A DNA stretch of 64,000 bases from Aphelenchoides besseyi (lineage: Eukaryota; Nematoda; Chromadorea; Rhabditida; Aphelenchoididae). The stretch covers positions 8,618,001-8,682,000 of the forward strand of contig JAMPIQ010000001.1 of the NCBI GenBank assembly GCA_024699855.1. Reading direction: 5' to 3'. Under the pieces are notes generated by a model. The model was not told the DNA's origin. It saw only the letters and a program-made list of their open reading frames with translations, and did no database searches. Position numbers and translations under genes: made by a program. Within the stretch, counting starts at the first letter, position 1; every line of letters begins with the position of its first letter. This document shows, piece by piece, positions 47,264 to 55,445 of the stretch.

Positions 47264-48874
<1,611 letters not shown>

Positions 48875-49416: not shown

Positions 49417-52400
49417 ATGAGTGCGGCTGCCGACGAGGATCACCATTCGGAGACACAGTCGGATAAGCGGGTATGTTGCCATTGGATTTGCTTGTTTCTA
49501 ATGTTTAGGAGTCCGAGGAAGCTCAGAGCTCACCGCCTCCAATCACAAATGGCCGAATGGACAAATCTCCGCATTCGGCAAGTCCACCATTGAATGACTC
49601 CAAAACAGGTAAGTGTTTCGATTCAAATTTCCACGCATTTTCTTTTTCAGAAGTCAAAAATGCGACGGCTTCTGAAGTGGTGACAAATGGCCGCTTGGAC
49701 CGATCGCCTCCACAAGACGCCACTCCTCCGCCATCAGATGCTCTGGAACCAGGTTTGAATTTCGTTTCTTCGATTGTTTTTGATTTTTGATTCAGAAGCT
49801 GACGAGCGCTTAAGCTCTAATGTGGAAACCAAACCACAGAAATCGACGCTTGAAGGCTGGGAAACGCCGCCGCAGGTTCGTTTCTTTGTGAATTTATAAT
49901 TTTTATTGGTGTGAATTGATTTTCAGGAGCCAGTTAAAGGAATGGTCCAACCGCGTTATATTCCGCCACATGGAAAACCGACGCGAAACACGAATTGCCT
50001 GGACTACATTTCGAAGAACGTCCTTAAACCGGCAATGAAACATCAGAAATCGTGGCCATTCAAAACGCCTGTCGACACGCTGGCTCTTAAGTGCGAGGTG
50101 AGTTCATTTCATTTTGATTATATTCGTGGCTGCTTTCCAGGATTATCACAAGATTATCAAGAAGCCAATGGACTTGGGCACGATTGATAAACGGTTGAAA
50201 AATTTTTATTATTATTCGGCCTCGGAGTGTGTAAAGGTCAGTTGGTTTTCTGTTGTTAAACTTTTAAATTTTTATTCAAATATGCACTTTTCCATTGCAC
50301 CGCATTTTTGGTTGTAAGGCATAAGCGATCGATTAATACAAAGAATAGTGGTGTATATTAGTTTATAATCGTTAGTGTGCAGGTGGTCTTTTTTGTTGGT
50401 TTGCGGTTTGTGTTGTGCTATTAGTCGATCGCTAAAGCGCCAATTTTCGAAAAGTTCTTTTGCCTTCGATCACTTTTGCCGTTTCCTCTTGAAAGAACGA
50501 AAAGATTGAAACGTTCCGTGCGCTTGTAGGATATTGGAACCGTATTTACTAATTGCTACGCATACAATCCCCCAAACTACGATGTTCATAAGATGGCTAA
50601 AGAACTTGAGGAGTTCCTATTAAACAAACTGAACAAAATCCCACCGGATGTAAGTTTGCTTTCTGAATCTTTGCATTTCAGGATTTTTCTCGACTGTTCG
50701 CCAACTGTTACGAGTACAATGGGCGTGTGGACGACGTTTCGCAGATGGCCCGTGATCTCGAGATGTTCGTACAAAAGCGAATGGACGGAATGCCCAAAGA
50801 GGTTCAACAACGACAGCCAACGACTTTTTCTTAACCCAGATATCAAAATTGACGGCGGTTTATTTGACGAAACATCAATGCTTTTGTTTAACTAATTTAT
50901 AATGAACCGCCGTCAATGAAAGAAAGAATCGAATTAATGTACTGTTTTCAGGAATACGAAATCCCACGTTTCCCGTCCAAGCGATCGAGCAAATATGACA
51001 AAAAGAGCAGCAAATCACTTGGTCGTTCGAGTTCGATTGCCTCAGCAGCTGGGCGAGGTAGTAGTACTCCGAATAGCTCGGCACCATCGGAATCTGCTAC
51101 TGCTGTTCTCGATTTCTTTCACAATTGTACCGTACAAGGTGCTCGACAATTCTTTCGGCTAATTTTTGTTCTTTCTTAACTTCTTTTTATGATTTTTGCC
51201 ACTACCTGGTTGTGTTTGGTACTTACCGGTTGACCTTGAAATCGTTTGTTTCTCTAATTGGGTCTAATGCACTTGGTTATGGTTTTAATCAACGAGTTGC
51301 ACCAAATTTCCAATGCACTTTGGGCTTGTGGAGACGTTAAATTTACGGAGTTCCCGGGGATTTTACGTTTAACTGGAAATCATTTCATCCTGAACAAAAG
51401 GGTCCCAATTTTGTTCGTTTGCTTCTTGTGTTCATCTTTCACATGCAATAGCCGAGGCAGACGACTGAAAGCTGAGTTTTGTTATCCGAAAGCCAATGCT
51501 GTTGAGTACCTTGTACGGTTGCATTTTTGTTTTTCAATCTTACGAATTCCGAAAGGTGCCGAGTTGTTTGTTAATTTTTCCGTTTGTTTTCCTTTTATTG
51601 TTGTTTTGTCCAAAAAAACATGGAGTCGTCTCTGCTGTTGCAGATTAACAGAAATGTTTTTGGTTATGTGCACTTTGCGGTATTATAGTCGTCTATTACC
51701 CACAAACTAACATTTATAATTGATGATCGTTTTTCTTTCAGTGAGTCGTGAATCGTCTATACAACGCTCTGAAGCGGCCTCCGATCGTCAATCAGTCGAT
51801 AAGGTGCTTAAGTTTATCACATCGATTAGTCGAATTTGATGTTTTCAGAAACCAATTAAGCGCAAACTCGAATCGCCAATGCCGCCGGTTGTCGAGGAGA
51901 AACGTCGAAATGTGGAACCACGACCAAAACGTCCAGATATTGACTACGCGCTTCTACCGCCACGCTATCACGGAAAACTGTCCAAGCAAATGATTTTCTG
52001 TCAGAAATTGCTCAAGGATATGACCAAAACCAAACTGTCGCAGTTGTTCACGTGGCCATTTCTCGAGCCTGTGGACGAAGTAAAGTTGGGAATCACTGGT
52101 TATTACGATATCATCAAAGAGCCAATGGATATTCAAACGATGCAAAAGAAATTGAATGCTCTACAATACGCGAATCCACAAGAATTTTACGACGATTTTC
52201 AACTCATTTGTAAAAACTGTTTTCTCTACAATCCTCCCGATCAACCGGTTCACAAGTGTGGTAAATCAATGCAAGTAAGTGATTGAATCTTTTCGACTTC
52301 ATTATATCGTTCTTATTTCAGGATTGGTTTAACAAACGTTGGGCTGAAATGCCAAAGGACGAGCCCGTTCAACGACAACCAAAACTTCCATCTGCAATAA

Positions 52401-55400
52401 AACACGATCCATACGCGTTCAGTACGGCTCCACCACCAGCTTTGGCAATGCCACCACCGTCTGTAGCAACCAGTGCTCAACCGCATCAAAATTACGGTCC
52501 AATCAACGACGATAGCGATCTGGACACGTTGCTCTTCGATGTCCAAACGGAACAAACTCGTGTTACGAATTTGGTCAGTGAATTGCAACAGTTTGTTACC
52601 GAATTACTGGCATTGAAGTAAGTTCTTTTTTCAACCGCAATTATCATAAACTGACTTTCAGATACAGACGACGCGAGGCAGACAGTCATAACATGGCTAA
52701 GCCCGAATTGAGCAGTCAACTTCATACTGTTATTCGTAATCGTCTATCTACGTCACATTTATCATCGATCTCTACACAAAATTTCGCCACTACAACATCG
52801 CTCTCGTCCGGCCCTTCGCTCTACAATTCACATTCCGGTTCTATGATTCCAAATCTTGGTGCCAACGCCGCATCCGCTTTATATTCAGCAGCCGCTGTTG
52901 CACCGGGGACCAGTCAAAAGAGTCGCGCAAAAGTTGGTCGACCAAAAGGATCGGTTTCAGGTGCTCGACAGGCATCAATGGATTTGAATCAACAATCGAT
53001 TCCAAATGGTCCGTTAATTTCTCCAGCGGCGGCATCACAAGCAATTTCAACTCCGACAATGAATGCCTACGGTCAGTTAGCAGCTGTTTCATCCGCCAAT
53101 CCACCACCAGTCAAATCTGGACGTGGTCGACCGTCGGGATCGAAGAACAAACCGAAACTACCACCGACAACGAATCAGGAACGTCGACAATACGAGTTCA
53201 ATTCGGACGACGACAACGCCGACGAACCGATGACTTACGACGAAAAGAAACGTTTGTCGCACAACATCAACAATCTGCAATCCGACAAGTTGACCGAAGT
53301 TCTGAGCATCATTTCGTCTCGCGAGAAGGCACTGAACGATGAGGACAAACCGGACGAAGTGGAAATCGACTTCGAGACGTTGAAACCACAAACATTGCGT
53401 GAATTGGAAGCTTTCGTTAACGCCTGTTACACGCAAACAAAACCACGTGCTCAGAAGCCGTCAAGTAAGTGATGGGAGATCAATTCGCAATCCCCTAAAG
53501 CTTTTGCTCAAACACTCCCGATTCACCTTTTGAATTTTTGGCTAAAAATTTTGCTTCTTTAAATTGAATGCCTAAACAGCAGCTTAAATGTTTTCAGCTT
53601 CACGTACGGAGGTCGATGCTGAGACCAGAAAACGTCAATTGGAGGAGCGATTGGCGGCGTTAAATGGAAATCAAACGACGACGAGAAGTACGCGCTTTCG
53701 TGAGCTTTTTTTGTTTTGCTTCTGCTTTTGCAAACATTTTGAAATTACAACGCTTCAGCAACTTTTGTTTCTTACCAACTTAATCATAACCTCTTTTAGC
53801 AGAGAACGCTCCATCGAATGCCACGACCGAAGTTCGTCGAGCGCCGGCTCGTAATGACGCGTCTTCGGAATCTTCGTCTTCGAGTTCCAGCTCCTCGTCG
53901 TCCGAAGGTTCTTCAAGTGATTCGTCCGATTCCGAATCAGGTTAGCCAAATAACTACGCAGTTTTTGTTTATTCGAAAACCCAAAATTTGGAAACTTTCT
54001 CAAGTTTTACATCCGCTTTTCCACTCATGATCTTCACACTCTCATTTAACGCTTCAAAAGCGAACTGTAAATACTACGTGGTAACTAATTAGAATCATTG
54101 TACATAACTCCAAAACCAAAAGCTCAGGGACATCAGTTCTCTGATTGTTGAGATTACTTGTTACTTCCCTTAAAGTTGTAAGACGAAAGGAATTGCTGAA
54201 GAATTAGCGAACATTGAGTTGATATCCAATCGTTTACCAATCAGAACATGCAGAAAAGATTCGAAGTGAATTGCGCTTAACTAGAATGTTCGTTCAATCT
54301 TCGCGATTTCCAATTCGTATCTGCGCAATCACTCCTTCTTCTAGTTGTTCATAGCTCTCTGTTGATTATATTATTCGCTACTTCGTACTTGTTCTTATGG
54401 TCGCCGGCGACACTTTAAAACAGTTAATCTTGATCCTCCAACTTCCCGTTTGCCTTTTTAATGTTTGCTTTATGTTTTTGTACAATAACGATTTTGGACC
54501 TCAGGCAACGAAATTGCCATTTTCGAATTTAAGTTAATAAACGGCGCACATTCGAATAGCTGCTCCTCATTGAACTTGTGCCTTTGTTGGCTGTTTCGTC
54601 GGTGGTTTTCGAAGGCGGAGTGCAGAATTGGGACTTGAAATAAAAACTTTTAAATGTGGGCTCTAAACTAAATCATATCGTGAAATCCAAGTGTTCAAAA
54701 TTTGTTCTTATAGAACAAACCAATCAGTGGAGTTCTGTTCCGAAGAAGAGTTCACCGATGCCGGGCGCAGCGAATGGCGCCGCCAACGATCGTCGACGTG
54801 TTGGAGTGAGTTTTCGTTTTTTGTCAATTCATCGAGAATATTTTCAGTCCAAACCAACGACCAACAACAACACGATTCCTGTCAAATCGAAGACTGAGGA
54901 CGCATCTCGACCGGCGGCTTCATCGACTCTTCTGTCTTCACGTAACACGTCGACTGGTGCATCGAGTGGAATCGGTGTTTCGGTTTTGGATCAACTGTTA
55001 CCTGAGACGATGGCGGCCGTTGATGCTGGTCTTCCGAAGCCAAACGTTAATCAAACATTCGACATGTTCCGACGTAAAAAGATGGAAAAAGAAATTGCAA
55101 CGGTAAATTAAAGTTCTTGCTCGCGATCTTGACTTTCGGCTATTTCAGAAAAACATTCGTGAACAGGAAGAGAATCGTCGAAAAATGGAGATGGAAAAGC
55201 TAAACCATTCGGATGGTTCTCAGCTGATGGGCGGAGTTCAACAGCCGCCGGTTGCGGAGATCGTGCAAGAACCGCCGTCGATGAGTAACGAGGATTTCGC
55301 TCGACTCCGGGAACTGGAACGAGTGAGTTTCCAGTTGATCACCAGTTAACTTGCGTTGTTGTTTTAGATTCGTCGTATGCGTGAAAGCGAAAGCACGTTC

Positions 55401-55445
55401 AGCAATCAAATGGACATAATGGCGAACTTTGAAGATCAATTTTAA
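49417..55445 (+). CDS. BET-family double-bromodomain protein with BRD4-like C-terminus
   Basis: Chromatin reader that binds acetylated histones. From ATG 49417 ([17 protein letters not shown]). Bromodomain 1: [56 protein letters not shown], then exon A or B carrying NCY.YN. Bromodomain 2: [39 protein letters not shown], then [15 protein letters not shown]. Next come AT-hook-like PKGS and [13 protein letters not shown] and the NET domain ([39 protein letters not shown]). After a Ser-rich exon (about 53820-53941) and a 772-nt intron, a C-terminal half resembles BRD4 ([26 protein letters not shown]) and ends [11 protein letters not shown], like the BRD4 P-TEFb-binding end. Long introns at 50237-50529 and 51141-51740 stand out from the tiny ones elsewhere. 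Confidence 0.95.
50324..50433 (+). repeat. 9-bp inverted repeat in the intron upstream of BET exon A
   Basis: AGCGATCGA at 50324-50332 and its complement TCGATCGCT at 50425-50433, in the unusually long 293-nt intron before the paired exons. May be chance, since the core GATC is self-complementary. Confidence 0.4.
50530..50649 (+). other. BET alternative exon A (BD1-like second half)
   Basis: 120-nt exon, phase 0 at both ends, preceded by TTGTAG and followed by GTAAGT. Encodes 40 residues from [20 protein letters not shown] to KIPPD. It carries the acetyl-lysine Asn (YN) and is closest to the BD1 helices of BET proteins ([14 protein letters not shown], like MAEALEKLFLQKIN). Confidence 0.85.
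50682..50801 (+). other. BET alternative exon B (BD2-like second half)
   Basis: Also exactly 120 nt and phase 0 at both ends, starting 32 nt after exon A behind a TTTCAG acceptor. Encodes [20 protein letters not shown] to GMPKE, 15 of 40 residues identical to exon A by my count. The end ([17 protein letters not shown]) is closer to the BD2 helices of BET proteins (MARKL...MRF...MP). Its donor would be GAG|GTTCAA, which is weak; read through, the frame stops at 50832-50834. Confidence 0.75.
50848..50917 (+). repeat. 13-bp perfect inverted repeat downstream of BET exon B
   Basis: ATTGACGGCGGTT at 50848-50860 and AACCGCCGTCAAT at 50905-50917 form a perfect 13-bp stem with a 44-nt loop. It lies between exon B and the common downstream exon (start 50952). 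Such a hairpin in pre-mRNA could influence choice of exon A or B. Confidence 0.75.
53942..54713 (+). other. BET 772-nt intron; candidate alternative 3' end
   Basis: The intron after the Ser-rich exon ends SDSES|G. If it is retained, translation stops at once (TCA GGT TAG at 53942-53947), leaving a protein ending after the NET domain and Ser-rich tail. Two AATAAA signals follow in the intron (54536-54541 and 54639-54644). The acceptor TTATAG joins to [12 protein letters not shown] in frame. A short form like BRD4-S is therefore plausible. Confidence 0.5.

What the first reader, a model, noticed from the sequence alone, without database searches (positions are those of the whole stretch)
50530..50801. 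Two equal-length, same-phase exons encode alternative halves of BET bromodomain 1
Exons A (50530-50649) and B (50682-50801) are each exactly 120 nt, phase 0 at both ends, 32 nt apart, and both carry the acetyl-lysine-binding NCY.YN motif. Only one is needed to complete BD1. A resembles the BET BD1 helices; B resembles BD2 helices (MAR.L and MP endings). This looks like a tandem exon duplication used as mutually exclusive exons, which would switch BD1 acetyl-lysine specificity. I know of no BET protein described with this. Alternatives: B is a poison exon (its GTTCAA donor is weak and read-through stops at 50832), or B is a relic.
Basis: partly seen in the sequence, partly recalled or inferred. 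Interest (0 to 1): 0.88.

Follow-up and report, generated by a model that had tools for sequence, protein, structure and literature searches.

The report
Ancient swappable exons in nematode BET
A rice-parasitic roundworm's BET gene, which makes a protein that reads acetyl marks on chromatin, carries two interchangeable versions of half of its first reading domain; both versions recur in gene models of many other roundworms, so worms probably choose by splicing between two acetyl-mark pockets, which matters because BET proteins are drug targets.

Summary
In Aphelenchoides besseyi, exons A (50530-50649) and B (50682-50801) are homologous 120-nt phase-0 exons; either completes BET bromodomain 1. 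The public model of this gene uses A; a truncated sister-assembly model begins inside B. Of 67 nematode BET models examined, 18 carry both types in one gene (4 with one incomplete), 19 only A, 20 only B; Trichinella and Trichuris models have one undifferentiated version, four Caenorhabditis models one B-like version. The pair probably dates to early Chromadorea. The 32-nt A-B intron is below the genome's usual short-intron range (about 37-46 nt), so A-B joining is unlikely. Splice sites are crossed: A weak acceptor and strong donor, B the reverse. Best reading: an ancient mutually exclusive exon switch tuning BD1 specificity. No transcript data were available, and B here is fast-evolving with a weak donor. 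My paper searches listed no BET protein described with this.

The parts
49417..55445 (+). BET gene; 18 coding exons in the A isoform (1081 aa in the public model), two bromodomains plus ET domain
   Evidence: Hand-built exon model of 1080 aa, the same as public protein P0003 (M3Y96_00251900, Aphelenchoides besseyi, 1081 aa) except at the 53803 acceptor (K against TE); Pfam Bromodomain x2 and BET in P0003
50141..50236 (+). Exon with the middle part of BD1 just before the pair ([15 protein letters not shown]...)
   Evidence: donor AAG|GTCAGT score 5.78
50319..50438 (+). Inverted repeat (20-nt arms, 85% complementary) in the intron before exon A
   Evidence: the whole intron does not fold better than shuffles (z +0.91)
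50530..50649 (+). Alternative exon A, 40 aa, BC loop N-P-P-N-Y-D-V; weak acceptor, strong donor
   Evidence: used in public model P0003
50650..50681 (+). 32-nt A-B intron, shorter than the genome's short-intron peak
50682..50801 (+). Alternative exon B, 40 aa, BC loop N-G-R-V-D-D-V; strong acceptor, weak donor
   Evidence: sister model P0004 starts with the last 19 residues of a B-type exon
50848..50917 (+). Hairpin (17-nt arms 50848-50864 / 50901-50917, 94% complementary) in the intron after exon B
   Evidence: fold of 50790-50960 z -3.61, 0 of 200 shuffles as good; one of 2 such inverted repeats in 264 kb; no second copy of the intron found in the genome
50952..51057 (+). Next exon, joined to A or B (EYEIPRF...)
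51849..52274 (+). Exon carrying most of BD2 (comparison copy)

Best explanation
A and B are an ancient pair of mutually exclusive homologous exons in the nematode BET gene. They arose by tandem duplication of the BD1 exon encoding helix B, the BC loop and helix C, in the ancestor of Chromadorea or soon after. Each transcript is expected to take one. A-to-B joining is hindered because the 32-nt intron between them is below the usual size; the choice is expected to depend on a crossed set of splice sites (A weak acceptor and strong donor, B the reverse) and perhaps on a stable hairpin between B and the next exon. The resulting BD1 keeps the acetyl-lysine anchors (N140 and M149 in both exons; Y97 and the WPF shelf upstream) but swaps the BC loop: B keeps the acidic BD1-type D144-D145-V146, A in most lineages puts an aromatic residue at the D144/H437 position after P-P, as in BD2. 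This should change which acetylated partners, and which domain-selective inhibitors, BD1 prefers. Shown: homology, equal phase and length, recurrence of both types in nematode models, short intron, splice-site scores, residue swap. Inferred: mutually exclusive use, regulation, changed binding.
For: Both isoforms complete a bromodomain. Of 67 nematode BET models taken by me from the capped lists: 14 hold A and B in tandem, 4 hold both with one incomplete, 19 A only, 20 B only, 4 Caenorhabditis single, 4 undifferentiated, 2 lack the region. In 11 of 11 tandem models with both exons complete, B starts exactly 40 residues after A. M. incognita has an A model P0238 and a B model P0232 with similar flanks (they could be gene copies). 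The 30 other B rows plus 4 Caenorhabditis rows group at 100/99; holding window B with them raises lnL by 17.55, p-AU 0.904. D144/H437 site: D in 29 of 30 B rows; Y or F in 21 of 27 A rows. In 264 kb, strong donor-acceptor pairs rise above background from 37 nt. PMC5321501 names D144/H437 and I146/V439 among three BD1/BD2 pocket differences in BRD4 (passages).
Against: No transcript evidence. B's donor GAG|GTTCAA is second lowest of 19 scored (-1.57; a donor used in the public model scores -1.75), and the hexamer is not enriched at intron distances (3 seen, 3.1 expected). Window B keeps 11 of 17 residues conserved in other B exons and the free tree put it beside the outgroups on a branch of 3.53. 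14 models include A and B together; I read these as predictor joins, but they could be real. 5 of 27 A rows (all strongylids) have S, not an aromatic, at the D144 site. D144A alone changes H4 and JQ1 binding little in human BRD4 (passages). With weaker GTT donors, counts are already raised at 33-36 nt (22.0 per length against 13.5-16.8), so the size limit is less sharp for them. No docking or selector sequences were found.
Confidence: 0.75

Rival explanations
1. In Aphelenchoides exon B is a decaying relic of the ancient pair: spliced rarely, with no protein role in this genus.
For: Weak donor, long branch, 6 of 17 B-class residues lost, public model omits B.
Against: No stop, frameshift or lost splice dinucleotide; 9 of 9 BET core residues kept, not reached in simulated neutral decay; strong acceptor 7.62; the sister assembly's model uses a B-type end joined to the next exon (P0004).
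Confidence: 0.15
2. B is a poison or truncating exon: it is usually read through or poorly spliced, ending the protein at 50832 and lowering BET dose.
For: The GT at the exon end is the weak GTTCAA donor; read-through adds [10 protein letters not shown] then stop.
Against: A poison exon has no need of a bromodomain reading frame recurring across nematodes with an exact 40-residue length and B-specific residues. The 20 B-only models read on into the next exon.
Confidence: 0.1
3. A and B are both included in one mRNA, giving a BD1 with a duplicated helix B-C segment.
For: 14 of 67 public models join A directly to B in frame.
Against: A second helix B-BC-helix C unit has no place in a four-helix bundle (inference). 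In A. besseyi the 32-nt intron is below the short-intron range. A-only and B-only models of close relatives exist side by side. Several of the joined or mixed models have other faults, such as unmatched residues before A in Thelazia and Elaeophora.
Confidence: 0.05
4. Window B is an independent later duplication in Aphelenchoides rather than the shared nematode B exon.
For: The free tree puts window B next to outgroups, and its mean identity to A and B rows is about equal (14.6 and 14.9 of 40).
Against: The constrained tree is better by 17.55 lnL. Its place after A is the same as in the tandem models, and B. okinawaensis, which I recall as a related genus, has a typical B exon.
Confidence: 0.12

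Closest known systems
Tandem duplicated exon substitution events (mutually exclusive homologous exons; e.g. tropomyosin, SLO-1/KCNMA1, SNAP-25, Dscam)
   Same: Adjacent homologous exons giving alternative versions of one folded segment, often ancient (PMC9741552, passages; PMC2581893 and PMC1397879, search listing only).
   Different: In PMC9741552 half of the 12 families shared by vertebrates, arthropods and nematodes are ion transporters; here the segment is half of a chromatin acetyl-lysine reader. 'bromodomain' and 'BRD' occur 0 times in its main text.
BET proteins BRD2/3/4, fs(1)h, C. elegans BET-1
   Same: Two bromodomains plus ET domain; best solved relatives are BRD4, BRD2 and BRD3 BD1.
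   Different: The 10 outgroup rows (9 named non-nematode animals, 1 unnamed) give one BD1 segment each, though I did not search those genes for unannotated exons; C. elegans BET-1 has a single B-like version. Long and short BRD4 and fs(1)h isoforms (recalled) differ at the C terminus, not in the BD1 pocket.
SMARCA2 bromodomain alternative splicing
   Same: Alternative splicing inside a bromodomain (PMC1949830, passages).
   Different: There a segment is lost and the domain is thought to be disrupted; here one homologous segment replaces another and the fold is kept.
Competing RNA structures at mutually exclusive exons (docking/selector model, PMC6071210, abstract and outline only)
   Same: Stem-loop in an intron flanking the exon pair.
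   Different: One local hairpin; no second selector was found.

Membership tests
Mutually exclusive homologous exons | Adjacent exons that are homologous to each other | tested here: met
   15 of 40 residues identical; both align to the same part of BRD4 BD1; 9 of 9 core residues in both
Mutually exclusive homologous exons | Equal or phase-compatible lengths so that either keeps frame | tested here: met
   120 and 120 nt, phase 0
Mutually exclusive homologous exons | A feature that disfavours inclusion of both | tested here: met
   A-B intron 32 nt, with strong sites, against an enriched range of about 37-46 nt for strong-site pairs in 264 kb; a sequence argument, not a splicing assay, and weaker GTT donors show some excess from 33 nt
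Mutually exclusive homologous exons | Transcripts contain one exon or the other | not testable with these tools
   No RNA data held; gene models only (A in P0003, B-type end in P0004)
Mutually exclusive homologous exons | Both exons conserved across species | tested here: met
   18 of 67 nematode models hold both (4 with one incomplete), 39 one type; window B itself is divergent
Docking/selector RNA control | One docking site complementary to several selectors next to alternative exons | tested here: not met
   One local hairpin, 50848-50917; no further close copy of the arm core near the exons
BET family | Two bromodomains and an ET domain | tested here: met
   PF00439 x2, PF17035 in P0003
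Poison exon | Inclusion brings a premature stop | tested here: not met
   B joined at GAG|GTTCAA keeps the frame to 50952 and through BD2 to the end; only read-through would stop at 50832

The most novel reading that the evidence does not exclude
Most chromadorean nematodes use one splicing decision in a single BET gene to give BD1 either a BD1-type acidic pocket rim or a BD2-type aromatic rim, regulated by tissue or stage, so that one gene makes chromatin readers of different acetyl code and different inhibitor sensitivity; Caenorhabditis lost the A version, which is why the model worm never revealed it.
Probability: 0.45. Interest if true: 0.85.

Novelty: new variant of a known kind. Interest (0 to 1): 0.72.

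Why it matters
BET bromodomains are heavily studied chromatin readers, and the D144/H437 position is one of the few where BD1 and BD2 pockets differ and has been used to explain selective ligands (PMC5321501, passages). An ancient natural switch at that position would show evolution tuning the same residue by splicing. It would also bear on nematode drug work: the BET inhibitor JQ1(+) kills adult Brugia malayi in vitro (PMC6890932, passages, which include abstract text; 'isoform' and 'Bm4523' occur 0 times, 'splic' 3 and 'exon' 1 times in its main text, and the 12 of 20 places shown do not mention this exon choice), and the two BD1 forms may differ in inhibitor binding. It offers a direct test of how a BC-loop swap changes a reader in an intact animal.

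Tried and rejected
Rejected: B derived from BD2 (window B shares 12 of 40 residues with the gene's own BD2, A shares 13; B rows closer to BRD4 BD1 in 29 of 30). Rejected: chance open frame. Looked for a docking/selector arrangement and found none. Looked for other copies of the intron after B (only itself found; that search skips very common words) and of the B-form BD1 exons (after the gene's own exons, the best are its BD2 and other bromodomain places). The intron before A folds no better than shuffles although it holds an inverted repeat. The second protein search (alignment query) added few nematodes. No structure prediction was run.

Rows left out. From the 67: P0170 and P0179 (Caenorhabditis) and unnamed clusters other than P0049; all three lists were capped at the best 120 (of 1669, 174 and 2619 hits). 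From the tree: the incomplete A of Globodera and Mesorhabditis, the incomplete B of S. hermaphroditum, P0218 (same segment as P0220), P0216 (A followed by unmatched residues), the N-truncated P0004, P0210, P0212, P0213, P0215, P0233, and P0038 and P0046, which lack the region; P0003 is the window's A. The Litomosoides A row went in as 39 positions with one X. From the residue table: A rows not of 40 residues (Ditylenchus, Litomosoides). The inverted-repeat count takes arms of 17 with at most one mismatch and loops up to 120. Splice-site matrices come from the 200 kb, window left out, and rest on introns inferred from length, not on transcripts.

Full report
WHAT IS THERE. The window lies in a 47.4-Mb genome held as G000. 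The gene at 49417-55445 on the plus strand encodes a BET protein. My exon model (1080 aa) matches public protein P0003 (1081 aa), M3Y96_00251900 of Aphelenchoides besseyi, the rice white tip nematode, apart from the 53803 acceptor. It has two bromodomains and an ET domain. Joining the upstream exons to A or to B and then to 50952 gives an open protein in both cases; A+B and skipping also keep frame. So frame alone does not police the choice.

IT IS NOT CHANCE. With A the upstream part makes a Pfam bromodomain of 67.4 bits, with B 63.9, with neither 39.2. The A form matches human BRD4 BD1 at 134.9 bits, the B form at 124.3. The two exons share 15 of 40 residues and 66 of 120 bases, so the duplication is old. 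In 20,000 simulations of neutral decay to that identity, 2,744 stayed stop-free, and none of these kept the 9 residues found in at least 85% of 67 rows (27 A, 30 B, 10 outgroup), the best keeping 6; both window exons keep all 9.

IT RECURS ACROSS NEMATODES. Three protein searches (each listing the best 120 of 1669, 174 and 2619 hits) gave 67 BET models that I examined: 66 named as nematodes and P0049, unnamed; two Caenorhabditis hits were left out. Of the 67: 14 carry A-type then B-type in tandem, 4 carry both with one incomplete, 19 only A, 20 only B, 4 Caenorhabditis models carry one B-like version, 4 (Trichuris, two Trichinella, P0049) carry one undifferentiated version, 2 lack the region. 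In the 11 tandem models whose A and B are both complete, B begins exactly 40 residues after A, so the exon borders have not moved. The A-only and B-only lists interleave among relatives: Bursaphelenchus xylophilus A and B. okinawaensis B; Parascaris A and Ascaris B; Wuchereria A, Brugia and Loa B (a second Brugia model, P0210, has both); Ancylostoma A, Necator B; Ostertagia A, Haemonchus B; Meloidogyne incognita both, in separate models that might be gene copies. The public A. besseyi gene uses A, while a truncated model of another A. besseyi assembly starts with the last 19 residues of a B-type exon joined to the next exon. These are gene models, many automatic and some with visible faults, and a missing type in a model does not show a missing exon; I read the split as annotation picking one of two real exons.

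TREE. With 79 rows of about 40 columns, 30 B rows and the 4 Caenorhabditis rows form one cluster (100/99), A rows are the slower grade near the Trichinella-Trichuris versions, and the A and B labels each need 2 changes against shuffled means of 23.8 and 24.4. Window B was placed near the outgroups on a branch of 3.53, a result against simple orthology. When window B is held with the other B and Caenorhabditis rows the likelihood is 17.55 higher, p-AU 0.904, so the free search had missed a better tree. I take window B as the shared B exon evolving fast. Forty columns cannot date the event precisely; the taxon spread points to early Chromadorea, after the split from the Trichinella-Trichuris lineage. 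In Plectus only B was seen.

HOW EXCLUSION MAY WORK. In 264 kb of this genome, distances from strong donors to strong acceptors rise from background at 37 nt, peak at 42-44 and fall off after about 46; at 32 nt two pairs were counted against a background near 0.7 per length, and the A-B intron's own sequence fits both motifs, so it should be one of them. For weaker GTT donors the counts are already raised at 33-36 nt (22.0 per length against 13.5-16.8), so the limit is less clear there. The modelled introns of this gene run from 38 to 773 nt. An intron of 32 nt is therefore likely unusable, which by itself would block A-B joining. Scored against a donor matrix from the 200 kb outside the window, A's donor is strong (6.34, sixth of 19) and B's weak (-1.57, second lowest of 19; the lowest, -1.75, is used in the public model). 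Scored as acceptors, A is weak (0.31, third lowest of 18; the two lower ones are at 53803, where the public model uses the AG three bases upstream, and at 54714, used in it) and B strong (7.62, third highest of 18). So each exon has one good and one poor site, an arrangement suited to regulation. B's hexamer GTTCAA is not enriched at intron distances (3 against 3.1), which counts against efficient use. The 150-nt intron after B holds a 17-nt-arm hairpin; the stretch folds better than all 200 shuffles, the hairpin is one of 2 of its kind in 264 kb, and no other copy of the intron was found in the genome. It could shorten the path from B or A to the next exon; that is inference.

WHAT THE SWITCH CHANGES. 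Both window exons carry the acetyl-lysine asparagine (N140), C136 and M149. The A and B rows differ in the BC loop. At the D144/H437 position B rows have D in 29 of 30, A rows Y or F in 21 of 27 (S in 5, all strongylids, C in 1); at D145 B has D in 30 of 30, A mostly G (18 of 27); A has P142 in 27 of 27. Literature passages read: D144/H437 and I146/V439 are named, with Q85/K378, as pocket differences between BRD4 BD1 and BD2, and D144/H437 is linked to Twist and olinone selectivity (PMC5321501); D145A weakened H4 binding about five-fold while D144A did little (PMC3979416). That last result tempers the functional claim.

KNOWN OR NEW. Mutually exclusive homologous exons are a known kind. Searches of the paper library for bromodomain with mutually exclusive exons or exon duplication, for C. 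elegans bet-1, and for nematode BET splicing listed no title or abstract start reporting this in a BET protein. I read listings, passages of five papers and the abstract of a sixth, not every hit, and subscription papers are mostly absent. A study of such events has no 'bromodomain' or 'BRD' in its main text (PMC9741552). The 2019 Brugia JQ1 paper has no 'isoform' or 'Bm4523' in its main text; I read only the passages shown (PMC6890932). The C. elegans model has only one version, a plausible reason for the silence.

VERDICT. Real, old, recurrent across nematodes, and most likely a splicing switch of BD1 pocket type; use in transcripts and the effect on binding remain to be shown.

Noticed in passing
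window 51058-51138, with 51129-51148 and 51500-51519: A second possible alternative event: a longer form of the exon after the pair ends in [12 protein letters not shown], with a motif ([FY]HN[AC]T) found in 12 of 67 nematode BET models; a slightly stricter pattern was found in 0 of 218 other proteins fetched. Its donor AAG|GTGCTC lies inside a 20-nt inverted-repeat arm that pairs 351 nt downstream (region fold z -3.34), suggesting RNA structure may hide it; the public model uses the short form.
   Followed up: partly
window 50319-50338 and 50419-50438: Inverted repeat with 20-nt arms in the intron before exon A; the intron as a whole folds no better than shuffles.
   Followed up: partly
window 48707-48874 (-): Apparent first coding exon of a RuvB-like gene (Pfam TIP49), divergent from the BET gene with about 540 bases between the start codons, so the two may share a promoter region.
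   Followed up: no
P0048, P0051, P0107, P0138: Four Caenorhabditis BET models keep a single segment that starts DI as A does but has the B-like D-D-V loop and groups with B; looks like loss of A.
   Followed up: partly
window 50682-50801 against P0237 and other B rows: Exon B has a far longer branch in A. besseyi (3.53) than in B. okinawaensis or the other B rows; the reason is unknown.
   Followed up: no
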